Assembly: GCA_903822205.1 (NCBI GenBank)
Contig: CAIJOK010000044.1
Location: forward strand, 1-64,000
Reading direction: 5' to 3'
Origin: an uncultured beta proteobacterium
Lineage (GTDB): Bacteria; Pseudomonadota; Gammaproteobacteria; Burkholderiales; Burkholderiaceae_C
DNA: 64,000 nucleotides
The first letter of the stretch is position 1; each line of letters opens with the position of its first letter. Below are positions 27,737 through 51,483 of the stretch, in pieces. Made by a program: the position numbers and the translations under genes. The notes beneath the pieces were generated by a model. The model had not been told where the DNA came from. It worked only from the letters and a program-made list of their open reading frames with translations, and made no database searches.

Positions 27737-29647
27737 TTGACTTCGTGCTGTCACAAACATTTTTTAATCTGGCATGGTCTTCACAACCAGGGTCATCACC
27801 ATGTCAGATCAAACCATTCTCGAACCCACATTCGACCACCCCACACACGTCAGGTCCATCCCGAACGGCTTGTACTCCCAGTCTGTGCGACACGGCAAGG
27901 GGCCATTGGCGGGGCTGATTCGTCGCCATGCACTGCATCCTGTCTATCAGCCCATCGTGTCGCTTGCCGACGGCAGTATTCATGCGCACGAAGCCCTGAT
28001 TCGCGGGCCGCAAAACACGCCCTTTCATACGCCCGATGTCTTGCTGGCAGCCGCCGAAATCGAACATTTGAACTTTGAGTTTGAAACTTATTGCGCCAGC
28101 GCCGCCATGATCCGCTGGAGTGAACAGGGTGAGTCCGGACGACTGTTTGTCAACATCAGCGCAGAGGTTCTGGTGCAGGTTTTACGGCAATGCGGCCCGG
28201 CCGTGCTATTGCATGATTTTGGTGTTTTGCCGCGTAGGCTGGTGCTTGAGATCACCGAGTACGAGCGTGTGTCAGACATGGATTATTTGACGCGTATCGT
28301 GGGGGACATTCGAGCAGCCGGTGTGTCTTTTGCGCTGGATGACTTTGGCGATGGCCGGTCTAGCCTGCGCCTGTGGTCACAACTCAAGCCAGAATACGTG
28401 AAGATCGACAAATACTTTACCCGTGACATCAGTCAGTGTGCGAACAAGTTAAAAACAATCCAGGCGCTGCAACAGATCGCGACCATTTTTAATTCTGCGC
28501 TGGTTGCAGAGGGGATCGAAAACGAAGCGGACATGCGGGTCTTGCGCGATCTCGGTATCACGTACGGCCAGGGCTTTTTCTTGGGGCGGCCCGCTCCTCA
28601 TCCACGGCAACAGATCGACCCAACGGCACAAGCGGTCATCAGCGATGGACGTGTGTCGGTCTTTCCGGAGCTGTGCCGAGCTTGCAGTGCCGGTGCGCTC
28701 AATCGTTTTGAAGTCACAGAGGCCCCTGCGATCGGACTGACCACCACCAATGAAGAATTGGCCAATTTGTTTATCAACCATCCTGGGCTACATGCTGCGG
28801 CCATACTGGACGATACCTGCCCTGTCGGGATCATCAACAGGTCACAATTCATGAATGAATTCAGCAAGTTGTATTACCGCGAGGTTTGGGGCAGCAAGCC
28901 CTGTTTGATGCACGCCAATCTGTCTCCACGCCTGATCGAGCGCCAGCACAATGTCGATGACCTGGTGGGCATCCTGACATCTGATGACCAGCGTTATCTG
29001 ACAGACGGTTTTATCGTGACCGACAACGGACGCTACGTGGGGCTGGGCACTGGTGAACAATTGGTCAAATCAGTGACTGAAACCCGCATTGAGGCCGCAC
29101 GCCACGCCAATCCCTTGACGTTTTTACCCGGCAATATTCCGATCACGCAGCACATTGAGCGGCTCTTGAACAGCCACACCGAGTTTGTCGCCTGTTACGC
29201 AGACCTGAACAATTTCAAGCCCTTCAATGACCAATACGGTTACTGGCGTGGTGACGAGATGATCCGGCTGCTGGCCAGCATCTGCGTGGCGCATTGTGAT
29301 CCGCAGCGAGATTTTGTAGGGCACGTGGGGGGCGACGACTTTATTTTGCTGTTCCAAAATGCCAACTGGCACATCCAGTGCAGGCAGATCATCGACGAGT
29401 TTGCCCAGCGTGCACGAACACTGTTTGACGAGTCTGCGCGATTGGCCGGTGGTATTTCTGCCGAAGACCGCTACGGGATTGCACGGTTTTTTTCGCTGAC
29501 CACACTGTCGATCGGGGCCGTCAAAATCACACGCCACGCCGTTGCATCAGCCGAGCAGGTGGCCTCTTGGGCCGCAAACGCCAAACACCGTGCCAAGGCC
29601 CGTGATGATGGTTTGTTTGTGCAGGATACGCCAGACACGGGCTACCT
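27737..29647 (+). repeat. Duplicated segment, copy B
   Basis: Second copy of the segment at 23003-24912. The last 50 bases (29598-29647) occur a third time at 53366-53415 with one mismatch, showing that at least one more copy of this gene once existed. Confidence 0.85.
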
Positions 29648-29675
29648 AGTGGCTGACAGAAAACCCTCTGTTTAA
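27801..29675 (+). CDS. EAL-CBS-GGDEF c-di-GMP enzyme, copy B
   Basis: A 624-residue paralogue of the protein encoded at 23067, with the same EAL, CBS-pair and GGDEF order. All EAL metal and catalytic residues (EALIRG, LEITEYE, LDDFGDG, LVAEGIE) and the GGDDF loop are conserved. Differences are scattered: a three-residue-scale length change in the HP/IHP-rich N-terminus, several in the CBS part, and a new C-terminal tail (DTGYLVADRKPSV) where copy A has QGLDNLLNL. The third, fossil 3' end at 53366 stops right after GYL, suggesting the longer tail here arose by loss of that stop. Copy number of this enzyme may set c-di-GMP turnover. Confidence 0.88.
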   Translation: MSDQTILEPTFDHPTHVRSIPNGLYSQSVRHGKGPLAGLIRRHALHPVYQPIVSLADGSIHAHEALIRGPQNTPFHTPDVLLAAAEIEHLNFEFETYCASAAMIRWSEQGESGRLFVNISAEVLVQVLRQCGPAVLLHDFGVLPRRLVLEITEYERVSDMDYLTRIVGDIRAAGVSFALDDFGDGRSSLRLWSQLKPEYVKIDKYFTRDISQCANKLKTIQALQQIATIFNSALVAEGIENEADMRVLRDLGITYGQGFFLGRPAPHPRQQIDPTAQAVISDGRVSVFPELCRACSAGALNRFEVTEAPAIGLTTTNEELANLFINHPGLHAAAILDDTCPVGIINRSQFMNEFSKLYYREVWGSKPCLMHANLSPRLIERQHNVDDLVGILTSDDQRYLTDGFIVTDNGRYVGLGTGEQLVKSVTETRIEAARHANPLTFLPGNIPITQHIERLLNSHTEFVACYADLNNFKPFNDQYGYWRGDEMIRLLASICVAHCDPQRDFVGHVGGDDFILLFQNANWHIQCRQIIDEFAQRARTLFDESARLAGGISAEDRYGIARFFSLTTLSIGAVKITRHAVASAEQVASWAANAKHRAKARDDGLFVQDTPDTGYLVADRKPSV

Positions 29676-29847: not shown

Positions 29848-30785
29848 CCTCCCGGGTTCGACAGTTAAAATTTTAAGTTGTTGATTCCTATAGTGGTGCG
29901 CTTCAAACGCGCCATTACCAAAGAGTCAACTGGGCGGGAAGGGTCGGTTTTTTGATCGTCAGTGCTTGCAGGATTTCCGTATGTTCCTGGGTGATGCTTG
30001 ATAGCGCAGCGATGGGATGCAAATCGTTTACCTTTACCACCTGATGCTGAATGCGGCGCAATTTGTCCAATGCACGCTCTGGTGAAATTTTGGTATGGCC
30101 GTCCTTGAGGCGGCTGCGCATCACTCGGTACAGAATCAGCGCCATCAAGCAGATCGACGCATGCACATGAATGCGTTCGGGTAAACGGTGATACATCGGC
30201 GATCCATCAGAAGTCTGCACCACGCCCACTTTGGTCATGCCATAGTGGCGCAAGTTCCCTTCCTGCTCAGACAAACCCGCAGCCCGAATGGTGGTCATGT
30301 CATACAACACCTTGGCCAAGTCTTGATCGACCAAGGGCCGTAGTAGGCTAGACATCACTTTAGCAACCGCGCTTTTGTGGTCGATCAATGCGTCCTAGGC
30401 ATGCAGCAGATGCTGATGCTCAATGGATTCCAGAGAAGTACCCGGCAGGGCCACGGTCTCCAGCCAGCACAGCACACCCAGCTTGGAGTCGGGGTCACAC
30501 AGGTGATTGAATACCATCACTCGGGTCAGGGCTTCAACGTCAATGCTGTGGCGAGTGTGACAAAACACAGAGCTTAGGCCATTAAAACCCAAAGCGTTCC
30601 AAAGCTCCGTAAGCGTCCAGACATCGCCAAAGTCACGGGCGGCATCAAAACGCAAGGTCGGTGGAACACTTGGCGGCGCAGCAAATAACAAATCGTGCCA
30701 TTACAAAATTTTGAATTTAGCGAGTTAGACCGTTGATTCCATTGGGGGGGGTGATTTGGGGCAAATAACTGTCGAACCCGGGAGG
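29848..30785. mobile_element. Insertion-sequence remnant bounded by 20-bp inverted repeats
   Basis: CCTCCCGGGTTCGACAGTTA at 29848-29867 and its exact complement at 30766-30785 enclose about 940 bases that hold a broken IS1634-type transposase. I take them as the terminal inverted repeats. A full IS of this family is nearer 1.7-2 kb, so about half the element is missing. A solo copy of the same end (CACCCGGGTTCGACAGT) is found near 53338. No clear target duplication is visible. Confidence 0.65.
29915..30691 (-). pseudogene. IS1634-type transposase with nonsense codon and internal deletion
   Basis: The first part (30691-30395) has the family motif WNALGFNGL, then VMVFNHLCDPDSKLGVLCWL and ends at a TAG (HQHLLHA-stop), after which the same frame continues DALIDHKS, so this is a point nonsense change. 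The second part has LLRPLVDQDLAKVLYDMTTI with one catalytic-region Asp, then jumps from VGVVQTSDGSPMYH directly to RLPERIHVHASICLMALILY. In intact members these two stretches are hundreds of residues apart, each near a Tyr-His, so the core with the other acidic residues was deleted. The N-terminal domain is also missing. It is dead. Confidence 0.8.
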
Positions 30786-30859
30786 GATGTCTGTTGTTGC
30801 ATAGGTTTGTCAGGATGGAGGTGAACCACGTCAACGTAGATCCATTTTGAGACGACCGA

Positions 30860-31097
30860 CCCGTTGTGGAGCCGGTCAGACTCGCTTTGTCCTTCCACCA
30901 CTTTGGGGCCACGTTTGCCATCGAAACAGGTTTTTGGCGTGTTCTTGAACTGCCTTCTTCCACAGTCCAAACTGGATCGGGTGGATCGCAAATTCTTGAC
31001 CAATCTGGTTGATCGTCTTGTCACCACGGAAAGACTTTAAGCTGACCTCGGCTTTGAACTCTGCTTTGTGTGCTTTTCGCTTTTTTGTCGCACTCAC
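30860..31097 (-). pseudogene. IS3-family OrfA remnant with frameshift
   Basis: ATG 31097 opens MSATKKRKAHKAEFKAEV, followed by KTINQIGQEFAIHPIQFGLW, the helix-turn-helix of IS3-family OrfA proteins. Near 30925 the frame shifts: EHAKNLF continues in the next frame as DGKRGPKVVEGQSESDRL. No OrfB integrase follows; instead the IS1634-type remnant begins. This is a leftover end of an IS3 element. Confidence 0.75.
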
Positions 31098-31336: not shown

Positions 31337-32110
31337 ATGAATACTCTCTTCAATAGACTTGCTGTAGTTTTACTACTTTCATTCTCACTGCTTGCACATG
31401 CTGTGGATAAACCAGCGACAGTCAAATTTTGCTATGAGGATGAAAATGTTTACCCGTGGGTGCTTAAGGATAGGCCTGGACTGAATATTCTGTTGATGAA
31501 CTCGGTTGAAAAAATTCTTGGGGTCAAGTTGGAGCTTGTACAGCGCCCATGGAAACGTTGCCAGGCAGAACTGAAAAACGGTGAAGTCGATGGCATCTTC
31601 TCAGCGAGCTACAAAAAGGAACGTCTGGAGTTAGGTGTCTACCCAATGGCAGACGACAAACTTGATGAAAGCAAAGCAGTCATGATTGATAGCTATAACC
31701 TGTATCGACTGAAAGGCAGCAGCGCCCAGTGGGATGGTAAAAAATTGACGATCAGCGGATCGGTGGGCGCTCAGTCCGGGTATTCAATCATTGAGCAGCT
31801 CAAGGGATTGGGCGTCAAGGTAGATGATGGAACAGGCAGTGCTGATAACAACTTGCTCAAACTGTTGTCCGGGCGGGTTGATGCAGTCGCACTGCAAACG
31901 CTGGAAGCTGATAATTTAATAGCAACCAACCCAACGTTTGCCGCCAAAGTGGAAAAAGTGACACCTGCCCTGGTGGTCAAACCGTTCTACCTCATGCTTT
32001 CCAAACAATTCAATGCCAAGTTTGGAGATTTCTCCAAAGAAATCTGGGCTGCTGTGGCCCAAGTGCGCGACTCTGCTGACTTCAAATCGAAAGCACGTGA
32101 TTTCAAATAA
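31337..32110 (+). CDS. Periplasmic solute-binding protein, family 3 type
   Basis: A 257-residue secreted protein: signal peptide to about residue 22 (VVLLLSFSLLAHA), then a bacterial family 3 solute-binding fold (SBP_bac_3) with YPWVLKDRPGLNILLMNSVE, WKRCQAELKNGEVDGIFSAS and a second-lobe VGAQSGYSIIEQL. No transporter genes are near; it is followed by receptor-like and CheX/CheY genes, so it may deliver a ligand to a sensor rather than feed a transporter. Such stand-alone proteins often act as sensor domains in trans. The ligand (amino acid-like by family) is unknown. Confidence 0.8.
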   Translation: MNTLFNRLAVVLLLSFSLLAHAVDKPATVKFCYEDENVYPWVLKDRPGLNILLMNSVEKILGVKLELVQRPWKRCQAELKNGEVDGIFSASYKKERLELGVYPMADDKLDESKAVMIDSYNLYRLKGSSAQWDGKKLTISGSVGAQSGYSIIEQLKGLGVKVDDGTGSADNNLLKLLSGRVDAVALQTLEADNLIATNPTFAAKVEKVTPALVVKPFYLMLSKQFNAKFGDFSKEIWAAVAQVRDSADFKSKARDFK

Positions 32111-32174
32111 ACGTGCTGGTCCCGTGTGAATTTGAAATCAAGGCAATTGACCAGCCTGAATTGAACCTCGTTCC

Positions 32175-32891
32175 ATGATAGCAACCATTGCATTATTGTT
32201 TCTGGGTGCGTTGCTGTTTGGCGCAGTGATGACTTGGCGCTACCAGCAACTTAAACATGCCATGCTCGCCATGTCACCCCGAATTGAAATTCAAGAAGTG
32301 CAGCTTCAACTGCAAGAAGCTCTTGAACGATTGCAACTTCAAAGCGATGAACATCAACAGCGTGAACAGGAGGTTCTATCCAACGCCAGTGAGCTGTCGA
32401 TGAAGCTTAATGAGCACAAACAATTGCTGAAACAAATTCAGTCTAATTTTACAGATGTCAACGGCCATGCCTTGGTTGAATGTGAGTCCTTTGGCAGCGG
32501 TGTTAGCGATTTACTCGGACTGGTCAAAACATTTGAACGCTGGCACGCCGATATGAACAACCTGATCGTTCATAACCGTGAAATGCATGTCAAAAATGAT
32601 GATTTCAGTGCCATCGTGAGACAAATGGTCATTGTGACGCTCAATGCCTCGATAGAGGCAGCCCGCGCAGGAGATCATGGTCGCGGTTTTACCGTCGTAG
32701 CAGATGAGATGCGAAAGTTGGCAGCGCGCGCCGAGAAACTGTCTGCTGACTACCGTAAAAACTTGTACAAAAATGATTTGATTACCGTTAACACGTTCCA
32801 GGATCTACAGGCCGGCGGCAAGATGATCATTGGCTCATTGGTCGGTCTCGAACTGACTTTCAAGAAAATCAAGGAGCGGCTGAGCGCCTGA
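32175..32891 (+). CDS. Miniature methyl-accepting-type membrane protein
   Basis: A 238-residue protein with one N-terminal membrane helix (IATIALLFLGALLFGAVM), a long coiled coil rich in Gln/Glu/Leu (residues about 40-100), and a shortened receptor signalling domain with the tip VTLNASIEAARAGDHGRGFT and VVADEMRKLAARAEKL. Usual receptors have a much longer cytoplasmic bundle, HAMP and a sensor; all are absent here. It could be a scaffold that pairs with the upstream binding protein or with the membrane kinases downstream. It is 65 bases after the binding protein gene and 9 bases before the CheX-like gene, so it belongs to one operon. Confidence 0.75.
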   Translation: MIATIALLFLGALLFGAVMTWRYQQLKHAMLAMSPRIEIQEVQLQLQEALERLQLQSDEHQQREQEVLSNASELSMKLNEHKQLLKQIQSNFTDVNGHALVECESFGSGVSDLLGLVKTFERWHADMNNLIVHNREMHVKNDDFSAIVRQMVIVTLNASIEAARAGDHGRGFTVVADEMRKLAARAEKLSADYRKNLYKNDLITVNTFQDLQAGGKMIIGSLVGLELTFKKIKERLSA

Positions 32892-32900
32892 ATATTCACC

Positions 32901-33455
32901 ATGATCACTAATAATGCACGTGAAGGTTTTGACCACTTGCTACTGCAAGGCATCAAAAGTTGCCTGGCAACCCAGGATAGCGACAATTGTCAAATCCATA
33001 TCAAGAATGATTTGACCGATTCACAGGAGCCGCATCTGGCTGTTCTGACAATATCTTCCTATCTGTTTCGAGTGATGGTTTTTTTTCATTTCGCAACTGA
33101 CAATCCAACCAAAGAGCACTTCGCTAAGTTATGCAAAACAAGCGCCCATGACATGAACGAAAAGGTCTTTATGGATGCGATTTGTGAGCGAGCCAATATG
33201 TGTTGTGGCTCGTTGAGCCGAGACCTTTCTCGTGCATTCCCACACATTGGCATGTCAACCCCCAACATTGTTAATCGGCAATGCGCTTCACATCTGCATT
33301 TGCTCAATTTTGTTCATATCCGTCACTTCAAGGTTGAAGTTAATACCGCTACGCATTTTCATGTCACGCTGTGTGTGAATAGCTACGATAACCTCGATTT
33401 CACGGTTGACAAGTTCGCATCAGATGCTGGCAATGGCGAACTGGAAATGTTTTGA
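32901..33455 (+). CDS. CheX-like phosphatase
   Basis: A 184-residue cytoplasmic protein. The segment AICERANMCCGSLSRDL contains the E-x-x-N active-site pattern of the CheC/CheX/FliY phosphatases, followed by FPHIGMSTPNIV, the beta-strand edge typical of CheX. CheX removes phosphate from CheY-P. It begins 9 bases after the mini-receptor gene. E. coli-type CheZ is also encoded in this window (17785), so this pathway has its own phosphatase. The call rests on motif and neighbours. Confidence 0.65.
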   Translation: MITNNAREGFDHLLLQGIKSCLATQDSDNCQIHIKNDLTDSQEPHLAVLTISSYLFRVMVFFHFATDNPTKEHFAKLCKTSAHDMNEKVFMDAICERANMCCGSLSRDLSRAFPHIGMSTPNIVNRQCASHLHLLNFVHIRHFKVEVNTATHFHVTLCVNSYDNLDFTVDKFASDAGNGELEMF

Positions 33456-33479
33456 CACCCCAACAACAAGGAGACACCC

Positions 33480-34454
33480 ATGAGTGAAGAAATCAAAGTT
33501 GTGAGCAAATTTTTGGTGCTGGATGATGACCAAAGCTGCCACGACAAAATCAAGATGTTTTGCGATGAAAACAGTTTGATTCCCCTGAAAGTCCAGGCAG
33601 ACAACGTGATGCTCATATTGAAGTCCAATGTGGATTTGGGCGGCATCTTGCTGTCCGAGAATTTTGGAGGTGATGCGTGTGCAGGCATAGAGCTTGGACG
33701 AGCCATTCATTCAATGCGCCCTGAATTGCCGCTGTTTTTACGGCGAGAGAATTGCGAAAACCTTGATGACCTTTCTCCACAAGACCGTCGCACATTTGCT
33801 GCGGCCTACACGATTGAGAATATTTCCTGTCTGCGAAAGACACTTGACGAATCAATTTTCAGCCTTGTCTATCCTAGCGTATTGGTACGCGGTGTTTTGG
33901 AGTTGACAAAATCCGCACTGGAGAGTCAGTTCATTGACATGACAGCCGAAAACGAATCGCCGTATATCGTGCGCGACAAATTGATTTTTGGCGAAATATT
34001 CACCCTCATTCCCATAGAAAACAACTGGTGTCGAGGCTTCATGATGTTGCAGTCAGAAGAGCAGTCATTGCTGGAACTCGTCAAATTTGAACGCACACAT
34101 GTCAGCTCGGACAGTGCCGAGGATTTTCGCAGACTGAACAGTGTTCTGGGTGAAATTACCAATCTGATTTGGGGTGCCTTCAAAAACCGATATTCGGGGA
34201 TCACCCGTGCGGACAGGAATTTGTCACAGGTTCCCATTGTGATCAATCATTTGCACCGTTATATCTCTTTTGGCTCTGACAATCCGCAACTGTGCTTTCG
34301 CTACACACTAACGGATAAGACGCAAGCTAATTCTCGCTCACTGGTCATCAACCAAAAGTTTGTCTTTAACTTGAACTGGAATCCTGATGATTTTTCAGAT
34401 AACTCGGCATCTGTCGAAGATTTGGTGAGCGCGGGTGAACTGGATTTATTTTAA
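33480..34454 (+). CDS. Degenerate receiver fused to CheX-like phosphatase domain
   Basis: A 324-residue protein preceded by AAGGAGA. Residues 8-125 resemble a response-regulator receiver (SKFLVLDDDQSCHDKIKMF) with the acidic pocket, but the position of the phosphoacceptor Asp reads GGILLSENFGGD, so it is likely not phosphorylated. Residues 135-320 look like a second CheX-type domain: LNSVLGEITNLIWGAFKNRY carries the E-x-x-N pair. It may bind CheY or a kinase through the dead receiver and act as phosphatase. It lies between the first CheX-like gene and cheY, 16 bases before the latter. Confidence 0.6.
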   Translation: MSEEIKVVSKFLVLDDDQSCHDKIKMFCDENSLIPLKVQADNVMLILKSNVDLGGILLSENFGGDACAGIELGRAIHSMRPELPLFLRRENCENLDDLSPQDRRTFAAAYTIENISCLRKTLDESIFSLVYPSVLVRGVLELTKSALESQFIDMTAENESPYIVRDKLIFGEIFTLIPIENNWCRGFMMLQSEEQSLLELVKFERTHVSSDSAEDFRRLNSVLGEITNLIWGAFKNRYSGITRADRNLSQVPIVINHLHRYISFGSDNPQLCFRYTLTDKTQANSRSLVINQKFVFNLNWNPDDFSDNSASVEDLVSAGELDLF

Positions 34455-34470
34455 TTTATTGGAGTAAAGC

Positions 34471-34839
34471 ATGGCACAAATACTGATAGTGGATGATTCG
34501 AGTACCGTTCGCAACGAAGTAGGAGACTTTTTGACAAAAAGCGGCATGACCGTGTCATTGGCGGTTGATGGACGTGACGGCCTGGCAAAACTCAAATCTG
34601 ATCCATCCATCAAACTCGTTGTCTGCGATGTCAACATGCCCAATATGGATGGGCTGACGATGGCAGAAAAGGTACGTGGTGAGTTACACAACCAGACCGT
34701 CAATATCATTATGCTGACAACAGAAAACTCGCCAGCCATGAAAGAACGTGGTAAAGCAGCAGGCATCAAGGGCTGGATCGTTAAACCGTTCAAGGGTGAT
34801 GCCGTATTGGCCACGTTCAAGAAACTTGTAGGTGCTTAA
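34471..34839 (+). CDS. CheY-like single-domain response regulator
   Basis: A 122-residue receiver protein with ribosome site GGAG. Conserved residues are visible: acidic pair D8/D9 (ILIVDDSSTVRNEV), phosphoacceptor D53 (VVCDVNMPNMDG), T83/T84 (MLTTEN) and K105 (IVKPFKGDA). It has no output domain, so it acts like CheY, by binding a motor, a phosphatase or an enzyme. Its neighbours (two CheX-like proteins before, CheA-like kinase after) suggest it is the phosphate carrier of this pathway. Confidence 0.9.
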   Translation: MAQILIVDDSSTVRNEVGDFLTKSGMTVSLAVDGRDGLAKLKSDPSIKLVVCDVNMPNMDGLTMAEKVRGELHNQTVNIIMLTTENSPAMKERGKAAGIKGWIVKPFKGDAVLATFKKLVGA

Positions 34840-34920
34840 CTGAACCCTTTCATCGCTGTCAATCAGTCCAAAGAGAATCTGATTCTATTCAGGCATGATT
34901 TAAAACGAAGGAGATAGTAC

Positions 34921-37197
34921 GTGGTTCACTACATGAGAAGCAGCATCGTCAGGGTATTCACCTTGGTGGTGCTGATCGGCATCGTCGTCGGTATGGGTGT
35001 TTTTACCTGGATGATCGGCGCGTACAACTATGACCGATCCATGCGCGAGCTTAGCGACAAAGCCACCAACACCGCCCAGCTGGCCGCCGTCAGTCTGGTT
35101 GAACCGGTCTGGAATTTCAACACCGCCGAGGTGCAGGGCATTGTGTCGGCCATCATGCTCGATACCGATGTGCAGGGCATTCGCCTGACCCAGGTCGGTG
35201 AAGACAAGCCGCAGTTGGAGAAACTGCGTGATGGCAGCAGCGCAGTCAGCTTTTCGGGTCTGCTTGCCAATGCCGCTAATTTGCAGAGGTCGGAAGCCAT
35301 CGTGCGCGAAGGCAAGGAGATTGCCCGCATCCAGATTGTGACTTCCAGCGACAAGGTGCTGGCGTTGGTGCGCTTCACCAGCATCATGATCGCTGCGTTT
35401 GCGGTGATCTTTGTTGCGCTGCTGTCGGGCTTTGTCTGGTGGCTGGGGCGGCGCATCATCCAGCGGCCCATTGATTTATTGCGCAACAGCGCCGACCAAC
35501 TCGCTTGTGGCAACCTGGAATATGCCATTGACACACGGCGTAGCGATGAACTGGGCAGCCTGGCCGTCAGCTTTGACGAGATGCGCAATGCCATCCGTCA
35601 GATGCTGGCCGTCATAGAGGAACATAACCGAACGCTGGAGCAAAAGATACTGGAGCGAACCGCTGAACTCCAAACCAAAACCAACGACATCAACACGATG
35701 CTGGAAAACATGCGCCAAGGCATTTTTACCATCGTTTCGGGTGGCATTATTCACCCCGAATATTCGGCTTACCTGCGCGACATTTTTGAAGTACTGGACA
35801 TCGCCAGCTTGAGCGTCTGTCCCTTCTTGTTTGCCGACAGTTCGGTGGGTGGTGATGAACTCGCGCAGGTGGATGCCACCATCAATGCCCTGATCGGTGA
35901 GGAAGCGATGAATTTCCAATTCAACTCGCACCTGCTGACCACTGAATACACCAAAAACTTTGCCAACGGGAAACACAAGACCATTGAGCTGGACTGGAGT
36001 CCAGTGCTTAACACCGATGGCCTGATTGACAAGCTGATGGTGACGGCACGCGACGTTACCGAGCTCAAGGCATTGCAGTGCGAGACCGAGCAGCAGAAAG
36101 AACAGCTTGAAATCATTGGACAGATTCTGGCTTTGTCGCGTGACAAACTGCTTGAGTTCTTCAAGACATCGTATGAGTTTCTGGACGAGAACCAGGCGCT
36201 GATCGAGCAAACTCCGCAGCTCAATCTGGATGTGGTCGCCACCCTTTTTCGCAATCTACACACCGTCAAGGGCAATGCCCGCACTTATGGCCTGAGCTAT
36301 TGCACTGACAAGGTTCACGCGGCCGAAAGCGTCTATAGCCTGCTGCGTGCACAACACAACTATGACTGGAACCAGCAAGCCCTGCTCGATCAGTTGGGCC
36401 AGGCGCGCGCCTGTATTGCCAAGTATGAAGACATTTACAAGTCCCGATTGGCTGGCTATAGCAACAGCGGCGCGGATGACACCAGCCCTGGCATGATGGA
36501 AAAAATCGCCTTGGCCATTGCGCGACTGAACGCCGACTCTTCCATTGAGGACTATAAAAACTTTACACGGATCGTGCGCGCCACCGTTGATGCCATGCGC
36601 TATGAAACAGTGGCAGCCATGCTGCACGGTATCGTGGCTGCCCTGCCTTCAATTGCGCGCCAGCTTGGCAAAGAGGTGCCCGAATTGGTCATTCAGGACT
36701 ATGGCATACGGATCAGAAAAGACATTGTTCCGGTGCTGCGCAATGTGTTCATGCATTTGTTCAGAAATAGCCTTGACCATGGTCTTGAAAGCACAGCTGA
36801 TCGCACAGCAGTGGGCAAACCAGCGCAAGGGCGCATCTTGCTGGAGGTCAGCCGCGACGACGACGCGCTGCGTTTCAGGTTTAGCGATGATGGGCAAGGC
36901 TTGGCGCTCGAAAAAATCCACGCCAAGGCCTGCGCTACTGGTCGCCTGATCGTCGGTCAGGCAGTCAGTGATGAAGCATTGGCCGAGATGATTTTTCTTT
37001 CGGGGGTGACCACCGCCGAGGCACTGACTGATGTGTCGGGCCGCGGCATCGGCATGGATGCCGTGCGCAAATTTTTGCACAAACACTTGGGCGACATCAG
37101 CCTGGTGTTCACCGCCCCCTCGCAGCAAGGCTACCGACCGTTTTGCCTGTTGCTGACGCTGCCGCCGTCGCTGACCTTGGTTGATGTCGGCGAGTGA
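34921..37197 (+). CDS. Membrane-bound CheA-like histidine kinase (Hpt plus ATPase), paralogue 1
   Basis: A 758-residue kinase starting at GTG 34921 after a strong AAGGAGA. Order: membrane helix (about 8-30), short periplasmic sensor with AVSLVEPVWNFNTAEVQGIV, second helix near 148-170, HAMP with coiled coil, a PAS-like domain (about 260-385), a histidine phosphotransfer domain with H447 in LHTVKGNARTYGL, and a C-terminal ATPase with N-box HLFRNSLDHGLE, FSDDGQGLAL and SGRGIGMDAV. This is CheA chemistry (Hpt plus ATPase) without P2, dimerisation or CheW-like domains, placed on a membrane sensor. Likely partner is the CheY just upstream. Confidence 0.85.
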   Translation: MVHYMRSSIVRVFTLVVLIGIVVGMGVFTWMIGAYNYDRSMRELSDKATNTAQLAAVSLVEPVWNFNTAEVQGIVSAIMLDTDVQGIRLTQVGEDKPQLEKLRDGSSAVSFSGLLANAANLQRSEAIVREGKEIARIQIVTSSDKVLALVRFTSIMIAAFAVIFVALLSGFVWWLGRRIIQRPIDLLRNSADQLACGNLEYAIDTRRSDELGSLAVSFDEMRNAIRQMLAVIEEHNRTLEQKILERTAELQTKTNDINTMLENMRQGIFTIVSGGIIHPEYSAYLRDIFEVLDIASLSVCPFLFADSSVGGDELAQVDATINALIGEEAMNFQFNSHLLTTEYTKNFANGKHKTIELDWSPVLNTDGLIDKLMVTARDVTELKALQCETEQQKEQLEIIGQILALSRDKLLEFFKTSYEFLDENQALIEQTPQLNLDVVATLFRNLHTVKGNARTYGLSYCTDKVHAAESVYSLLRAQHNYDWNQQALLDQLGQARACIAKYEDIYKSRLAGYSNSGADDTSPGMMEKIALAIARLNADSSIEDYKNFTRIVRATVDAMRYETVAAMLHGIVAALPSIARQLGKEVPELVIQDYGIRIRKDIVPVLRNVFMHLFRNSLDHGLESTADRTAVGKPAQGRILLEVSRDDDALRFRFSDDGQGLALEKIHAKACATGRLIVGQAVSDEALAEMIFLSGVTTAEALTDVSGRGIGMDAVRKFLHKHLGDISLVFTAPSQQGYRPFCLLLTLPPSLTLVDVGE

Positions 37198-37244
37198 TCC
37201 GCGATGAGTTTTTTCTCGATATTTTTTATTGGCGATGACTCAAG

Positions 37245-37541
37245 TGGTTACCAGACAGGCCAGATTTCTCGGGGCCATTCATGGCTGGACTCCTCTTTCA
37301 AGACTCCGCGTGACGATGACATCTGTGCGATCAATGCTCATCGGATGCATCGTTCAGCCAGCTTGGTTTTTCTGTGGTGATAGAGTCGATCAGAGCATCA
37401 ACCACTATAGTTCATCAATTGTGAAAAACGCTGTTCAAGACGATGTGACAACTGGAACTGTCCATACATCTCAAAGGTAGCCAACGCGATCGTTGTGACC
37501 ACGATGAACAGAATGACAAGGCGAATACGTATGGACTGCAT
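37245..37541 (-). pseudogene. Fossil of a histidine kinase/HD-GYP module
   Basis: On the minus strand, ATG 37541 begins a frame MQSIRIRLVILFIVVTT and continues to LSHRLEQRFSQLMN, nearly the same as the first 43 residues of the kinase encoded at 51484-53046. At about 37407 it jumps to VDALIDSITTEKPSWLNDAS ending DEH-stop (near 37333), the last residues of the HD-GYP regulator at 49845-51479. Bases below 37333 still resemble the sequence downstream of that regulator. Everything between, about 3 kb, has been deleted. This is the remains of a second copy of the intact two-gene module 12 kb away, stranded between the two CheA-like kinases. Confidence 0.8.
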
Positions 37542-37563
37542 CTGATGATTGTTGACCATGATT

Positions 37564-37581
37564 GTGACAAACAGATGTCAG
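37564..37581 (-). promoter_or_regulatory. Conserved operator/Pho-box-like site of the fossil module
   Basis: GTGACAAACAGATGTCAG lies 23 bases before the fossil start codon. The intact module has GTGACAAAAAGATGTCAC at 53269-53286. Read on the minus strand this is a pair of heptamers 11 apart (CTGACAT, TTGTCAC; 12 of 14 PhoB positions), and AACAAT follows after 10 bases in both copies. It is also close to an inverted repeat GTGACA-6-TGTCAC, so another regulator is possible. Confidence 0.45.
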
Positions 37582-37679
37582 CCGCGTCCAAATGAAGCGA
37601 TGGGCCTTACACATGGGCCTTACACAACACAAGAACTGTTTGACAAATGCGCCTGGCCAAACTTATAAAGCGCATAAAA

Positions 37680-37713
37680 ACGACATCAAACTGTCATCCA
37701 GGAGGTCAATAAT
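37680..37713 (+). promoter_or_regulatory. Pho-box-like promoter of the second CheA-like kinase
   Basis: ACGACATCAAACTGTCAT (37680-37697) has one perfect CTGTCAT heptamer and one weak one, 11 bases apart (11 of 14). AATAAT follows after exactly 10 bases (37708-37713), five of six matches to a -10. The start codon at 37746 is preceded by GTGAGG. Confidence 0.45.
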
Positions 37714-37745
37714 CCGCAGCAATATCAACAAATCGTGAGGTCGTT

Positions 37746-40109
37746 ATGAACATTCGTTATCGCATCATATTGCTGGTGGTTTTGACTTTTTTGGCAATCT
37801 CGCTCATCGGAAGTTTTGCGGTTTACCAGAGCAGAGGCAGCGCCATCCAGGTCAAGGTAGTCACCAAGGGTGTGGTGCCCAGCTCACTGGCCACAGCCGA
37901 ACTGGTGGGGCAGTTGAAAGACGTGCAACTCGCAGTGATGACCATTGTTTCTGCCACAGACCTGAAATTGGCTGCTCTGGCAGAAGATCGGTTGCTAGCT
38001 ACGCAGGCACGCTTGCAACGTGCCTTTGACGATCAGTTGAACTATGCTGACAGCAATGCCCAGCGCGGATTGCTCATGCAGGTCAAAGAAAATCTCACTA
38101 ACTACTATAGCGCCATCAAGGACACCATTGGCTTTAAGCTCAAGGGTAACAACGATATGGCGGAGGCCAATCTTGCCGCCAACGTGAGTGGCTATCTACA
38201 GGAGATGGAGCAGGTGGTGGAAACGCTACAGGTCCAGAAGCGACGCAGCAAGGACGATGCGATTGCAGGGCTCAATGACAACCTTAACAACACGACCAGA
38301 ACAACTGCCTTCATGACCGTGATCGCGGTGCTGTGTCTGAGTGGGGCAGGGTTGTTGTTATACCGTCAGATTATTCACCCCATCAGAGAGATGGAACTTA
38401 AGATGACGGAAATCGCCAGCAGTCAGGATTTCAGCCAAAGACTACCGGTGCATCGCATGGATGAAGTGGGTCATTCAATGATCGCTTTCAATTCAATGGT
38501 TGAAAAAATTCAGGAGAGTACTGAACTTGTCAAGCAAAAGACGGCCGACATTCGTGCGATGCTTCAATACGTCCCGCAGGGCATTCTGACGGTGGAGTGC
38601 GGCAACCGGATTCACCCAGAGTATTCAGATTTTCTGGAAAGCATTCTGGAAACCAAGGACATTGCCGGGCGCAACCTGATGGATGTGGTGTTCTCTGAGA
38701 CCCAATGCAATGCAGACCAACTGTCACAAATCGAGACTGCCGTCAGTGCCTGCATTGATCAGGATATGATGGACTTTAGCTTCAACGAACACCTGCTCGT
38801 GAACGAAGTCCACAAAACCATGATGAATGGCTGCATCAAAATACTTGATCTGAACTGGTCACCCATTACAGACGAAAACGGCATCACTCGTCGCATTTTG
38901 CTGTGTGTGCGCGATGTGACTGATGTCCGTGCTCTGGCCACCAGAGCGCAGGAGCAAAAACGTGAACTCAACATTGTTGGTGAAATCCTGGCGGTCAAGC
39001 AGGAAAAGTTCTACGAGTTCGTGCAAACTGCGATTCAATTTATCGAGGACAACCGCGCCATCATCGAGAACACAAGCGATGCCGATTTGGATGCAGATCG
39101 CACTCCAGTGATCACAAAGTTGTTTCGCAACATGCACACCATCAAAGGCAATGCACGTACCTATGGTCTTCTTCACCTGACGCATGTTGTGCATGTCGCT
39201 GAGCAAACTTATGACAGCTTGCGTCAAAATTCTGATACGGTGTGGGATAGCGAATATATGTTGACACAACTCGATGCTATTCGCAAAGCATTGGATGAAT
39301 ACGTGAATATCAACGAAATTAAGCTTGGCCGTAAGGGACCTGGCCGTCGCGCTGACGTGGATAAGTTCATGATTGTGGACAAACCGCATATCGACGCGAC
39401 TCTGGCACTGTTGAATAGTGCCGACTTGACCAATATGTCTGGATTGCGCGAAGCCTTGCGCCAAACTCGCCACAATCTGGAACTGATGGGTACAGAACCA
39501 GTAGAAGAAGTGCTGGCAGGGGTGCTTGAATCGTTGCCGTCCCTGGCCCGCGAGCTGGGCAAGGAACCGCCTGTTTTGGGCATTCAATCCCATGGCATCA
39601 TGCTACGCAACCAGGTGGCCAGTCTGTTGAAAAATGTCTTTATGCATCTCTACAGAAATGCGGTGGACCACGGTCTGGAAACTGCGGCTGAACGCATGGC
39701 GCACGGCAAGAGTCCGGTTGGTCAAATTCAACTGACATTGAACATGCAAGGTGATCAGCTCGCGATTCGACTACAGGACGATGGACGCGGACTGGCACTT
39801 GATGCCATTCGTCGCAAGGCGCAGGAACGCCAATTGATTTTGCCTGACGAAGTTTTGACACCCGAGCGTGTGGCCCAGCTTGTCTTGCAGCCAGGATTTT
39901 CCACCGCAAAACATGTGACTGAAGTGTCAGGACGTGGTGTCGGCATGGATGCGGTTAAGAGCTTTGTCCAAGCAGAGGGAGGTTCTATTGCGTTGGTCTT
40001 GCTGGATGCCACGTGCAATCAGGAATTCTTGCCTTTTGAAACCTTGATTCTTTTGCCAGGCAAGTTTGCGGTCGCACCCGTTTTGCATTTGTTGCAACGG
40101 GCTGCTTGA
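37746..40109 (+). CDS. Membrane-bound CheA-like histidine kinase, paralogue 2
   Basis: A 787-residue kinase with the same output as the protein encoded at 34921 but a different sensor. The N-terminus has a membrane helix (about 7-28), a periplasmic four-helix-bundle region like the 4HB sensors of chemoreceptors (about 30-190), a second helix near 193-213, HAMP, a PAS-like domain (about 270-405), an Hpt domain with H464 (MHTIKGNARTYGLLHL), and an ATPase with HLYRNAVDHGLE, LQDDGRGLAL and SGRGVGMDAV. It lacks P2, dimerisation and CheW domains. A chemoreceptor-type sensor on CheA-type catalytic parts makes a one-piece receptor-kinase. It probably shares CheY and CheX with the upstream genes. Confidence 0.85.
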   Translation: MNIRYRIILLVVLTFLAISLIGSFAVYQSRGSAIQVKVVTKGVVPSSLATAELVGQLKDVQLAVMTIVSATDLKLAALAEDRLLATQARLQRAFDDQLNYADSNAQRGLLMQVKENLTNYYSAIKDTIGFKLKGNNDMAEANLAANVSGYLQEMEQVVETLQVQKRRSKDDAIAGLNDNLNNTTRTTAFMTVIAVLCLSGAGLLLYRQIIHPIREMELKMTEIASSQDFSQRLPVHRMDEVGHSMIAFNSMVEKIQESTELVKQKTADIRAMLQYVPQGILTVECGNRIHPEYSDFLESILETKDIAGRNLMDVVFSETQCNADQLSQIETAVSACIDQDMMDFSFNEHLLVNEVHKTMMNGCIKILDLNWSPITDENGITRRILLCVRDVTDVRALATRAQEQKRELNIVGEILAVKQEKFYEFVQTAIQFIEDNRAIIENTSDADLDADRTPVITKLFRNMHTIKGNARTYGLLHLTHVVHVAEQTYDSLRQNSDTVWDSEYMLTQLDAIRKALDEYVNINEIKLGRKGPGRRADVDKFMIVDKPHIDATLALLNSADLTNMSGLREALRQTRHNLELMGTEPVEEVLAGVLESLPSLARELGKEPPVLGIQSHGIMLRNQVASLLKNVFMHLYRNAVDHGLETAAERMAHGKSPVGQIQLTLNMQGDQLAIRLQDDGRGLALDAIRRKAQERQLILPDEVLTPERVAQLVLQPGFSTAKHVTEVSGRGVGMDAVKSFVQAEGGSIALVLLDATCNQEFLPFETLILLPGKFAVAPVLHLLQRAA

Positions 40110-40217: not shown

Positions 40218-41096
40218 CTAGTGTTGGTTGGCAAAAATAGCCCTAACTTCCTGGTAGTTGTCATCATTCACCCGGGTAAATCCGCTGATGTTGAGCTGCA
40301 CAAACATGTTCTGGAATGTTGCGTCATTCTGAAAGAAGGCTTTGTCAAGCAAGGCAACCAGATGGGGGCAAAGCTTGCCACGATAAACAAAAGGGTCATG
40401 TGGAATCGGCGACGATGTCCAGATGATGCTGAGTTCGGTCGGGCCAAGGCTGCCTTGGCGCACAGCCTCGTCTGCGCGAAGGCTCGAAACAAAGGCCGCA
40501 TCGACAATGCCTTTTTGCACAGACTGTATGGCACGGTCATGCGATCCGGCAAAAGTCACACGACCAAAATAGCGTTCAAGCGGCAGTCCGGTCAGTTTGG
40601 CAATGGCTTCACGGGGCAGCAGAGCGCCTGAGGTGCTGGTGGGGTCGATCAGGCTGACACTGGCACCGCGCAGGTCTGCCACGTTGTTAAATCCCTTGTC
40701 ACGTCGCACTATCAAGAGGGATCGGTAATGTGAGGGCGAATCGGTATAAGTGCCTTTGATCCCTACCGTGGACGCAAACGCCGTGATGCCGGGATCGCGG
40801 GTTTTGGCCAGGGCATAAGAAGCCGGTCCCAGTTCGGCCAGGTCGATGCTGCCAGACAAAATTCCCTCCACCACGGCACCATAAGACACGGGATGAACCA
40901 GTTCTATGCGTCGTGCCAGCAAGCGCTCCAATGCCTGAATCAACGGGCGGTATTCATTGAATTGAATCTCGACGGACTTTTGGGGTATCACGGCAAATCT
41001 GAAGATTTTTGGATCACTGCACTGTGCTGCCCCCAGTGAACCCAGGCCAAACAACGTGACCAGACCGACAAGGTATATTTTGAAATTCAAGATCAT
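40218..41096 (-). CDS. PhnD-type periplasmic binding protein
   Basis: A 292-residue protein with a signal peptide (LVGLVTLFGLGSLGAA) and the fold of the PhnD family (phosphate, phosphite or phosphonate binding): FAVIPQKSVEIQFNEYRPLI, GSIDLAELGPASYALAKT, STSGALLPREAI and the hinge VDAAFVSSLRADEAV. No transporter genes adjoin it. Its ATG overlaps the stop of the upstream GGDEF-EAL gene by four bases, so the two are co-translated, and the binding protein may be the sensor partner of that membrane enzyme. The ligand is inferred from family only; many such stand-alone PhnD proteins sense other oxyanions. Confidence 0.8.
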   Translation of the reverse strand: MILNFKIYLVGLVTLFGLGSLGAAQCSDPKIFRFAVIPQKSVEIQFNEYRPLIQALERLLARRIELVHPVSYGAVVEGILSGSIDLAELGPASYALAKTRDPGITAFASTVGIKGTYTDSPSHYRSLLIVRRDKGFNNVADLRGASVSLIDPTSTSGALLPREAIAKLTGLPLERYFGRVTFAGSHDRAIQSVQKGIVDAAFVSSLRADEAVRQGSLGPTELSIIWTSSPIPHDPFVYRGKLCPHLVALLDKAFFQNDATFQNMFVQLNISGFTRVNDDNYQEVRAIFANQH

Positions 41097-43426
41097 TCGG
41101 GCTTCAAATAGGATTGAATAAGAAGGTTGCGGGCGGCCTCGGCGGGCATCGGTCGGCTCAAGAGATACCCCTGAACTTCATCACAGCCAACGGTTTTGAG
41201 ATGAACGAGTTGCTCCAAAAGTTCGACACCTTCGGCAACCACGTTCTTTTTCAAGTTGTGCGCCAGCGTCACGATGGAGGAAACAATGACAGCATCAGAA
41301 GGAATGTTGCGAATTTCGCTGATGAAGGATCGGTCGATCTTGATGGTGTGGATGGGTAAGGTACGGATGTAGTTAAAACTTGAATAACCATTGCCAAAGT
41401 CATCCAAAGCAATGCCCACCCCGATTTTTTCCAGCGCACTCAGTACCGATACTGCAAGCTCAACAGGTTCCACCAGACAGCTCTCGGTAATTTCAACCGC
41501 CAGCAGATGTGCTGACAATCCAGCTTGGCCCAGGCAGGCGGCAATGCGCCCGGGCAGTTGCTCATCGCGTAACTGCCGTGCCGTCACATTGACGGCAATG
41601 GGCACAATCGCCAGCCCCTGCGCCTGCCAGAGCGACAGTTGATGACAACATGCTTGTACCACCCAGTCACCCAGGGCCATGTCCAGCCCCGTGCTCTCTG
41701 CAATGGGGATGAATTCACCGGGTTGAATCAAACCATGTTGTGGATGATCCCACCGAACCAGTGCCTCAAAGCCGACAATCCGATAGTCGGCAAGGCGAAC
41801 TTTCGGCTGAAAATACACCACCAGCTCGTTGTCGGCAATGGCCTGGGGTAGGCGTTGCTCCAATTCAAACTGGCGATCGCAGGGTGGGTTGAGTGAAGGT
41901 TCATAAAAGGTGTAACGCCCCCGGCCAGCCCGTTTGGATTGGTACATGGCCGCATCGGCATTGCGCGAAAGAATATCCACGTTGTGGCCGTCACGCGGGA
42001 ATACCGCAATGCCAATGCTGGGGCTGACCTGAAGATCGTGTCCATCCAGATCGACATACGGACGGCTGATCAACTCGACCATTTTGCTGGCAACCTCGGT
42101 GATGTGTTCCACGTTGTCAAGTTCGGTTAGCAGGATGGCAAATTCATCGCCGCCCAGGCGGGCAACCAAGTCTGATTCGCGCAGTGCAGCACTGAGCCGC
42201 GTGGCGACGGTTTGCAGCAGCAGGTCACCCACATGATGGCCCAGTGTGTCATTGACAAATTTGAAGCGATCCAGATCAACGTACATCAGACCATAGTGCT
42301 TGCGACTGCGTCTGGCTCGTGCGATATGGCTGGCACCCAGCTCAAAGAACATGCGTCGGTTGGGCAGCGATGTCAGTGGGTCATGTGTGGCCAGTTTGAG
42401 GACGCGTTGTGCTTCTTCCTGTAATTGCAGAATGAGTGTGCGTTTGTCAAGATCGGCAGCTTTCAGGGCAACGACGAGTTGCTCCCTTTTTTGAATGGTA
42501 CTGGCAATCCAGCAAAGCGCGCCCACCATGAACGCCGTGATCAACCACAAGGTGGGGGGAAACCGCGAGCCGTTGATGCCGTAATCGGCATACATTTCTT
42601 CCAGATCACGACTGACCACGACAAGGAAAGGAAAAGGCACAAGATGCCTGAAACTGACCTGACAGGGGCGGCCATCGTCGAACAGATCCGTGACCACCGA
42701 ACCATGGCGCTCACCTGAAAACGGCAAAAGTGCAGTCTGCCAGGGTTGTTTGGACAGTTCCAATCCGCCTTGTCTGGCTCTGGCGATTTCTTCGCCATTT
42801 CGGCGCAATATCTGTATGGCCCCCGTTCGCCCGATGTCAATATTCTGGTACAAGCCCAGCAAATATCCCAGGTCGAGTACGACCATGAAAATTCCATGTA
42901 TTCTGCCGGTTTTGTCCGGCATCGGAAACAGAAGGGGAACTTGCCACATTTTTTCTTGCAACGTTGAAACAGGTCCCACATGCAAACCCGAGGCAGCTTT
43001 GTCTTCGAGCGTGGCCCGAATACTTTGGGTGAGCAAGTCACTGTCCGTTGATGCTGAAGACGAATAGACCCTTTTCAAGTGCATGTCATACAAGGCCATA
43101 CGCACGAAGGCATGATCCAAAGAAAGCATCGCTTCCAGTCGGGTGGATGCCTCAGTGCTGTTACCGTCAAACCATTCAGCAGATGCCAGTGCCAGCAATG
43201 CCCCCTTATCCAGCAACTGGGCCAGGTTTTCGGAGATGATGAATGCCAGACTCTCCTGGTGAACACGTGCGTTATGGTGGGCCATCTTGCGCTCTTGCAC
43301 AAGCATCTGCTGCGTGATGAACCAGGTTGCAACCAGTACCAATACAAACAGCGTGACAACGCCAAAAACAGGGTTTTTTAAAACCGACCCAACCAGCGTC
43401 TTGAAGATTTTGGGGCAACGCAGCAT
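41093..43426 (-). CDS. Membrane sensor GGDEF-EAL protein
   Basis: A 777-residue protein: membrane helix at about 18-40, a periplasmic Cache-like sensor of about 260 residues, a second helix near 305-325, then GGDEF and EAL domains. The diguanylate cyclase site is intact (GGDEF 425-429) with the product-inhibition site RESD five residues before it. The EAL domain also keeps its motifs: EALVRW (554-559), AVNVTARQL, LAVEITESC, ALDDFGNGYSS, IKIDRSFI, VVAEGVE and GCDEVQGYLLSRP. So it may switch between making and degrading c-di-GMP. It overlaps the PhnD-type gene (ATGA), which suggests ligand-bound PhnD controls it. Confidence 0.9.
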   Translation of the reverse strand: MLRCPKIFKTLVGSVLKNPVFGVVTLFVLVLVATWFITQQMLVQERKMAHHNARVHQESLAFIISENLAQLLDKGALLALASAEWFDGNSTEASTRLEAMLSLDHAFVRMALYDMHLKRVYSSSASTDSDLLTQSIRATLEDKAASGLHVGPVSTLQEKMWQVPLLFPMPDKTGRIHGIFMVVLDLGYLLGLYQNIDIGRTGAIQILRRNGEEIARARQGGLELSKQPWQTALLPFSGERHGSVVTDLFDDGRPCQVSFRHLVPFPFLVVVSRDLEEMYADYGINGSRFPPTLWLITAFMVGALCWIASTIQKREQLVVALKAADLDKRTLILQLQEEAQRVLKLATHDPLTSLPNRRMFFELGASHIARARRSRKHYGLMYVDLDRFKFVNDTLGHHVGDLLLQTVATRLSAALRESDLVARLGGDEFAILLTELDNVEHITEVASKMVELISRPYVDLDGHDLQVSPSIGIAVFPRDGHNVDILSRNADAAMYQSKRAGRGRYTFYEPSLNPPCDRQFELEQRLPQAIADNELVVYFQPKVRLADYRIVGFEALVRWDHPQHGLIQPGEFIPIAESTGLDMALGDWVVQACCHQLSLWQAQGLAIVPIAVNVTARQLRDEQLPGRIAACLGQAGLSAHLLAVEITESCLVEPVELAVSVLSALEKIGVGIALDDFGNGYSSFNYIRTLPIHTIKIDRSFISEIRNIPSDAVIVSSIVTLAHNLKKNVVAEGVELLEQLVHLKTVGCDEVQGYLLSRPMPAEAARNLLIQSYLKPE

Positions 43427-51479: not shown

Positions 51480-51483
51480 ACCC

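What the first reader, a model, noticed from the sequence alone, without database searches (positions are those of the whole stretch)
31337..40109. Unusual self-contained chemosensory array with membrane CheA-type kinases
In one direction lie a periplasmic binding protein, a miniature receptor-like protein, a CheX-like phosphatase, a dead-receiver/CheX fusion, CheY, and two CheA-like kinases carrying their own membrane sensors, PAS and Hpt. There is no CheW, CheR, CheB or classical CheA. This looks like a phosphorelay that has merged receptor and CheA into one protein, with two phosphatases to drain CheY-P. It may control something other than, or in addition to, flagella. I am not aware of a described system with exactly this set.
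Basis: partly seen in the sequence, partly recalled or inferred. Interest (0 to 1): 0.75.

Follow-up and report, generated by a model that had tools for sequence, protein, structure and literature searches.

The report
CheA-like sensor-kinase module without CheW
A conserved set of neighbouring bacterial genes encodes a sensor kinase that carries the phosphate-handling parts of the chemotaxis kinase CheA but lacks its receptor-coupling part, together with its own CheY and two CheX-type proteins that are predicted to switch that CheY off; it is likely a second, simpler route by which swimming bacteria feed outside signals into their behaviour.

Summary
Seven + strand genes at 31337-40109 encode a binding protein, a miniature receptor-like protein, a small CheX-like protein, a degenerate-receiver/CheX fusion, CheY and two membrane kinases. 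The kinases have Hpt and CheA-type ATPase domains but no CheW-like (P5) domain, so they are not CheA by the published definition. Five components (kinase, mini-receptor, small CheX, receiver-CheX, CheY) form a conserved module: contiguous and co-directional in 82 of 94 loci, mostly Betaproteobacteria. The binding protein is not part of it. It is not an array: nothing array-forming is encoded there, and the host has CheA and CheW elsewhere. New here: both CheX-type proteins end in one peptide, GELELF, seen in 0 of 1259 other proteins of these loci. In 13 whole genomes 9 of the 10 further hits of the tail patterns are chemotaxis proteins (5 MCP, 3 CheD, 1 weakly CheZ-like). This suggests that the module's phosphatases dock on a chemotaxis hub. 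Likely mechanism: kinase-to-CheY phosphotransfer drained by two CheX proteins; activity and output are untested. All 13 module genomes examined have FliM (order baseline 78 of 117). The listings I saw showed no paper on this module, but subscription literature was not searchable. Verdict: a new variant of a known kind.

The parts
32175..32891 (+). mini-receptor (238 aa): N-terminal hydrophobic segment, predicted coiled coil, MCP hairpin tip, short return helix
   Evidence: MCPsignal E 4.9e-16, residues 146-190 only; own conserved blocks W123/N134/N141 and Y193..NDL.T..FQD.QAGGKM; 323 bits against 70 for the next match in its genome
32601..32726 (+). MCP-like tip of the mini-receptor (residues 143-184)
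   Evidence: C side [22 protein letters not shown] kept in nearly all of 88; N side F/Y-Q-T-N of canonical tips mostly K/R-Q/H-V/M-V/I here
32901..33455 (+). small CheX-like protein (184 aa), predicted CheY-P phosphatase
   Evidence: PF13690 E 0.00021, under cut-off; CheX assigned to 9 of 120 listed relatives; E96 and N99 in 88 of 89 aligned, 1 gap; profile match to the CheX part of the fusion, E 1.5e-05, probability 80
33186..33197 (+). ExxN motif of the small CheX (E96-N99)
33435..33452 (+). C-terminal tail GELEMF of the small CheX
   Evidence: tail in 76 of 87 family members; 0 of 1259 other proteins of the loci; whole-genome pattern hit
33480..34454 (+). degenerate receiver fused to CheX (324 aa)
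   Evidence: receiver fold 7-133 and CheX fold 129-298 in the AlphaFold2 model; 1334 database matches at E <= 0.001
33657..33659 (+). Glu60, at the receiver's phospho-Asp position by the reporter's own alignment to CheY
   Evidence: E in 84 of 92 with a letter, D in 3; invariant in the 19 rows of A1
34152..34163 (+). ExxN motif of the fusion (E225-N228)
   Evidence: E and N in 94 of 94
34434..34451 (+). C-terminal tail GELDLF of the fusion
   Evidence: tail in 86 of 92; pattern hit
34471..34839 (+). CheY, single-domain response regulator (122 aa)
   Evidence: Response_reg E 2.8e-24; D8, D9, D53, T83 in 90 of 90 and K105, W102 in 89 of 90, 1 gap; nearest solved relative V. cholerae CheY4, 4h60
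34627..34629 (+). Asp53 of CheY, predicted phosphorylation site
   Evidence: 90 of 90
34921..37197 (+). kinase K1 (758 aa): predicted TM, alpha/beta periplasmic part, TM, HAMP, PAS-like part, Hpt, CheA-type P4, no P5
36259..36261 (+). His447 of K1, predicted Hpt phospho-His
   Evidence: His in 85 of 85
37746..40109 (+). kinase K2 (787 aa): 4HB_MCP_1 sensor, HAMP, PAS-like part, Hpt, HATPase_c, no P5
   Evidence: Hpt and HATPase_c in 51 of 51 scanned module kinases; starts 548 bp after K1
39135..39137 (+). His464 of K2, predicted Hpt phospho-His
   Evidence: invariant H464 in the 51 rows of A3
31337..32110 (+). family-3 periplasmic binding protein; neighbour 64 bp upstream, not part of the conserved module
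   Evidence: PF00497 E 1.7e-07; no close relative in the other 93 loci

Best explanation
This is a conserved five-gene signalling module in which a membrane sensor kinase, built from the Hpt and ATPase parts of CheA but lacking the CheW-like coupling domain, would phosphorylate a dedicated CheY, while two CheX-type proteins that share a C-terminal GELELF peptide would likely dock on a chemotaxis hub and strip the phosphate off. Shown: the gene set, its conservation, domain architectures, catalytic motifs, the shared tail, and the presence of the tail on CheD, MCP and one CheZ-like protein in module genomes. Inferred: the kinase's own sensor and HAMP control phosphorylation of the Hpt His; the His passes phosphate to Asp53 of CheY; the two ExxN-bearing CheX domains remove it. 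Inferred and weaker: the receiver of the fusion, with Glu in the phospho-Asp place, is a permanently set regulatory arm; the mini-receptor is a membrane scaffold derived from a receptor tip; the output modulates flagellar behaviour, perhaps not by binding FliM directly.
Against: No phosphotransfer or phosphatase activity was measured. The small CheX matches Pfam only at 0.00021, under the cut-off. The nearest solved CheY relative, V. cholerae CheY4, was reported not to bind FliM (PMC3774744, abstract and passages), which speaks against direct motor control. Alpha5 of the module CheY is the least conserved of the six elements (0.74), which speaks against the whole alpha4-beta5-alpha5 face as the tail's dock. 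The tail's partner is unknown; the tail was sought only in module genomes, so it may be older than and independent of the module, and 11 of 87 small CheX and 6 of 92 fusions deviate from it. The FliM association ignores phylogeny and rests on 13 genomes. Neighbouring genes show no common output.
Confidence: 0.62

Rival explanations
1. The module is a separate two-component pathway with no physical link to chemotaxis; CheY-P would act on a non-motility target such as a c-di-GMP enzyme or a type IV pilus, and the tail would serve only inside the module.
For: CheY resembles V. cholerae CheY4, reported not to bind FliM. GGDEF-EAL genes lie on both sides of the window's module, and the family of the upstream one lies near the module in 6 of 94 loci, the window included.
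Against: The tail occurs on CheD, MCPs and a CheZ-like protein in module genomes. All 13 module genomes have FliM and CheW. Six of 94 loci is weak.
Confidence: 0.27
2. The mini-receptor joins canonical receptor arrays, so that the module is an add-on which brings CheX phosphatases and extra kinases to the flagellar array (compatible with the best explanation, but more specific).
For: The C side of the tip is nearly identical to canonical receptors; CheW is present in 13 of 13 module genomes; the CheX tail is shared with CheD and MCPs.
Against: On the N side the canonical tip is altered (Asn in 20 of 20 canonical tips, Val or Ile in 79 of 88 mini-receptors). The chain after the tip is short, about 55-75 residues in the window's protein, with no room for a canonical second methylation helix (recalled).
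Confidence: 0.3
3. This belongs to the signalling systems intermediate between two-component and chemotaxis systems that Wuichet and Zhulin described in 2010, so the class is already known in outline (compatible with the best explanation).
For: My recollection of that paper's abstract only; the architecture here (own sensor, Hpt, CheA-type ATPase, no P5) would fit an intermediate.
Against: The paper is not held, so neither its gene sets nor its families could be compared.
Confidence: 0.35

Closest known systems
CheA histidine kinase of chemosensory systems
   Different: no CheW/P5 domain, which a survey found in 100% of CheAs (PMC10782961, passages); own membrane sensor, HAMP and PAS-like part
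CheX phosphatase (T. maritima 1xko, B. burgdorferi CheX-CheY 3hzh)
   Different: fused to a degenerate receiver in one protein; both module CheX proteins carry the GELELF tail
CheZ phosphatase
   Same: recalled: E. coli CheZ docks on CheY through a C-terminal peptide; one weakly CheZ-like protein here has the tail GDIELF (L185, Pfam CheZ E 0.0019 under cut-off)
   Different: different fold (recalled); no CheZ gene in the module
V. cholerae CheY4
   Same: best solved relative of the module CheY (4h60, E 5.2e-24), Trp at the beta5 switch position (PMC3774744)
   Different: encoded with cheA, cheW, cheB, cheR and cheD genes in cluster III (PMC11940527, one passage)
Methyl-accepting chemotaxis proteins
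   Same: C side of the hairpin tip
   Different: no sensor or HAMP match, altered N side of the tip, short return helix, own conserved blocks

Membership tests
CheA | phosphotransfer (Hpt) domain | tested here: met
   51 of 51 module kinases scanned
CheA | dimerization domain P3 | tested here: inconclusive
   P3P4 structure 4xiv aligns over 515-750 but with rmsd 10.5
CheA | CheA-type kinase domain P4 | tested here: met
CheA | CheW (P5) domain, in 100% of surveyed CheAs (PMC10782961) | tested here: not met
   CheW not among the 11 families matched by 51 kinases; 42-92 residues after the G2 box in 82 of 85
CheA | no sensor domain of its own (PMC10782961 abstract) | tested here: not met
   4HB_MCP_1 in 29, 7TMR-DISM in 5, HAMP in 38 of 51
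Canonical chemosensory array system | CheW adaptor encoded with kinase and receptor | tested here: not met
   none in 31337-40109; nearest in the window is CheV at 14981-15952
CheX phosphatase | ExxN catalytic motif | tested here: met
   94 of 94 fusions, 88 of 89 small CheX with 1 gap
CheX phosphatase | CheX fold | tested here: inconclusive
CheX phosphatase | dephosphorylates CheY-P | not testable with these tools
   needs an assay
Active receiver domain (fusion N-terminus) | receiver fold | tested here: met
Active receiver domain (fusion N-terminus) | phosphorylatable Asp | tested here: not met
   Glu in 84 of 92, Asp in 3 of 92; position assigned by my own alignment
CheY | acid pocket, phospho-Asp, Thr and Lys | tested here: met
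   D8, D9, D53, T83 in 90 of 90; K105 in 89, 1 gap
CheY | binds FliM | not testable with these tools
   nearest solved relative does not (PMC3774744)
MCP | canonical signalling tip | tested here: not met
   C side kept, N side differs at positions (Ala, Asn) invariant in 20 own-genome MCPs
Wuichet and Zhulin 2010 intermediate systems | gene set listed in that paper | not tested
   paper not held

The most novel reading that the evidence does not exclude
A CheA-like signalling system without CheW shares a C-terminal docking code, G-[ED]-[LIVM]-[ED]-[LMF]-F, with CheD, with particular MCPs and with a CheZ-like protein. Through this tag its two CheX phosphatases sit on the same chemotaxis hub (CheY or CheA) as the canonical enzymes, so that a stand-alone membrane kinase can override or retune the flagellar array. 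The mini-receptor is a new receptor-derived protein family that couples to the kinase instead of to CheA.
Probability: 0.3. Interest if true: 0.82.

Novelty: new variant of a known kind. Interest (0 to 1): 0.62.

Why it matters
If it works as proposed, sensor, Hpt and CheA-type kinase act as one membrane protein with a dedicated CheY and two phosphatases, conserved as a unit in many Betaproteobacteria and some Gammaproteobacteria. That would make the question of how receptor-coupled CheA evolved from stand-alone kinases directly testable. The shared C-terminal peptide gives a concrete, mutable link between this module and canonical chemotaxis, and is a candidate docking code that would explain how several chemotaxis proteins are brought to one place.

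Tried and rejected
HubP/MotV/MotW of V. cholerae (PMC8789113, passages), met through a search for CheX and Hpt: different domain architecture, rejected. A conserved output gene next to the module: families recurring beside it look like lineage synteny. Of 18 neighbours scanned, among them a glutamine amidotransferase, FtsK, an acetyl-CoA carboxylase subunit and transporters, one was an EAL-GGDEF protein, one an HDOD protein and one a binding protein of another family (L091). The binding protein as a module part: no close relative in the other 93 loci (that search reaches close relatives only). The argument that the tail partner cannot be the mini-receptor or small CheX because L107 lacks them locally: rejected, since a small CheX is elsewhere in that genome. 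Sigma-70-like promoters and terminators around the genes: no more than in shuffles. My first gene calls (longest ORF first) missed or mislabelled genes in many loci and were replaced by profile hits and a codon-based caller. A hydrophobic-segment test for the mini-receptors gave 56 of 87; some called starts look too late, and the membrane anchor is not shown for all. The mini-receptor and K1 were not compared with any library of predicted cellular structures. Literature: searches listed no paper that I recognised, from title, abstract start or term counts, as describing this module; four of them showed only the top of long lists (26: 25 of 271; 29: 15 of 212; 74: 10 of 101; 20: 20 of 25), and no search was made for the tail. 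The two other searches were for other points. The library lacks most subscription journals.
Full report
Observation. The seven genes are present as described. By the coordinates the gaps in the window are 64 bp (binding protein to mini-receptor), then 9, 24, 16 and 81 bp down to K1, and 548 bp between K1 and K2. K1 and K2 are paralogs (38% identity over residues 161-752 of K1).

The 324-residue protein has a receiver fold at 7-133 and a CheX fold at 129-298 (the model is of middling confidence, mean pLDDT 69.5). By my alignment to CheY, its phospho-Asp position is Glu in 84 of 92 sequences with a letter there, and the switch Thr position is Arg in 82 of 94. The CheX half keeps E and N of the ExxN motif in 94 of 94. 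The small CheX keeps them in 88 of 89, with one gap. That ExxN is the CheX active site is recalled knowledge. The small CheX is the weakest assignment: Pfam E 0.00021 under the cut-off, CheX assigned to 9 of the 120 listed relatives, one solved CheX at E 0.029.

The mini-receptor looks like a family of its own. It keeps the C side of the receptor tip (L-N-A-x-I-E-A-A-R-A-G, then G-R-G-F-A-V-V-A, then E-V-R and L-A) in nearly all of 88 sequences. Just before that, 20 canonical receptors of the same genome read Ala (20), Phe or Tyr (16), Gln (20), Thr (19), Asn (20), whereas the mini-receptors read Val (84 of 88), Lys or Arg (68), Gln or His (72), Val or Met (82), Val or Ile (79) (20 of the 32 other matches were fetched). 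It has conserved blocks of its own before and after the tip.

The neighbourhood. Receiver-CheX proteins were found in 13 of 399 genomes of the order and 4 of 369 of a class sample, the own genome included in both. A scan of named genomes confirmed 152 loci and kept 80; their titles are mostly Betaproteobacteria (Rhodoferax, Aquabacterium, Herbaspirillum, Paraburkholderia, Caballeronia, Rhodocyclaceae and others) with a few Gammaproteobacteria. With the 13 stretches and the window this gives 94 loci, of which two pairs share an identical fusion protein and contig length. All five genes are contiguous and co-directional in 82 of 94: 66 in the order kinase, mini-receptor, small CheX, receiver-CheX, CheY; 9 in the order kinase, receiver-CheX, CheY, mini-receptor, small CheX; 5 with the kinase last; 1 with kinases at both ends; and the window with two kinases last. 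The other 12 are 5 without an adjacent kinase, 3 with the fusion alone, 2 with kinase, fusion and CheY, 1 with small CheX, fusion and CheY, and 1 with kinase and fusion; some of these lie at contig ends. These counts are conditional on the fusion protein, which was the query. Three class-level loci not used to build anything (L136-L138, 3.9 kb each, too short to show the kinase) again carry mini-receptor, small CheX, fusion and CheY; L139 holds a second fusion gene of one of those genomes with only a weak CheY match nearby. Their tails fit the pattern in 4 of 4 fusions and 2 of 3 small CheX. The binding protein has no close relative in the other 93 loci, and neighbouring genes show no common function.

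A shared tail. Both CheX-type proteins end in the same peptide. With the pattern GE[LIMVF][ED][LIMVFA]F at the C-terminus it is present in 86 of 92 fusions and 76 of 87 small CheX proteins (duplicates removed) and in 0 of 1259 other called proteins of the loci; most of the exceptions are one-residue variants such as GALELF. The stretch is predicted with low confidence in the model (297-324), as expected for a free tail. Two DNA patterns for the tail (second residue Glu or Asp) gave 26 and 7 hits in 13 whole genomes; the reversed control patterns gave 1 and 0. The 33 hits are 23 CheX-family genes (22 and 1; all 23 checked to end a small CheX or fusion gene), 3 CheD, 5 MCP, 1 weakly CheZ-like protein (Pfam CheZ E 0.0019, under cut-off) and 1 frame without a Pfam match. 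Ten of 19 CheD loci examined by a rough reading script end in this tail or a close variant, including one of the own genome's three CheD matches, with GSVDLF, in a cluster with CheA and CheW domains. So the tail recurs on chemotaxis proteins well beyond chance in these genomes. It was not sought in genomes without the module. Its partner is unknown. CheZ of E. coli docks on CheY by its C-terminal peptide (recalled), which makes CheY a candidate. Of six elements of the module CheY compared, beta5 (1.00) and alpha4 (0.93) are the most conserved, which would fit a dock there; but alpha5, part of the CheZ-binding face, is the least conserved (0.74; whole protein 0.85).

Link to flagella. All 13 module genomes of the order sample have FliM and CheW. 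FliM is found in 81 of 120 genomes of the order, three of which are module genomes, so 78 of 117 without; Fisher one-sided p 0.0073, not corrected for phylogeny. Against a direct motor role: the CheY's nearest solved relative is V. cholerae CheY4, reported to hold the switch Trp inward but not to bind FliM (PMC3774744, abstract and passages). The module CheY also has Trp there in 89 of 90 (1 gap).

Reading. I take this to be a stand-alone sensor-kinase pathway made of chemotaxis parts, with fast reset by two CheX phosphatases, and probably tied to the canonical chemotaxis machinery through the tail. Phosphotransfer, phosphatase action, tail docking and output are inferred. It is not an array, and the binding protein at its head is a local neighbour. 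Eight literature searches listed nothing that I recognised as this module, some of them showing only the top of long lists; Wuichet and Zhulin 2010, which I recall as describing intermediates between two-component and chemotaxis systems, is not held and may cover its class.

Noticed in passing
genomes G178, G122, G195, G206, G060, G295 (L113, L121, L132, L180-L185): C-terminal G[ED][VI][ED]LF on CheD, on MCPs and on one weakly CheZ-like protein: a possible chemotaxis-wide docking tag.
   Followed up: partly
window 40218-43426, - strand: PhnD-like binding protein (PF12974, E 7e-55) overlapping by 4 bases a GGDEF-EAL protein with a weak Cache match: a likely binding-protein/c-di-GMP sensor pair.
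   Followed up: no
window 23040-24935 and 27774-29675, + strand: Two related EAL-GGDEF proteins upstream of the module; the same family lies near the module in five other loci.
   Followed up: partly
window 14981-15952 and 15994-17541: CheV (CheW plus receiver) next to a PAS-containing MCP on the other strand.
   Followed up: no
window 29915-30963, - strand: Three short frames without a Pfam match between the EAL-GGDEF gene and the binding protein; they may be pieces of a broken transposase (impression only).
   Followed up: partly
window 49845-53058, - strand: Response regulator with DUF3369 and HD domains next to a histidine kinase.
   Followed up: no
L042:4938-6062 and L052:5001-6098, upstream of the module: Fatty acid desaturase match and transposase-like (DDE_Tnp_ISL3) match in one frame.
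   Followed up: no
L028 and L139: Receiver-CheX fusion genes standing without the rest of the module in the stretch fetched, both keeping the tail.
   Followed up: partly
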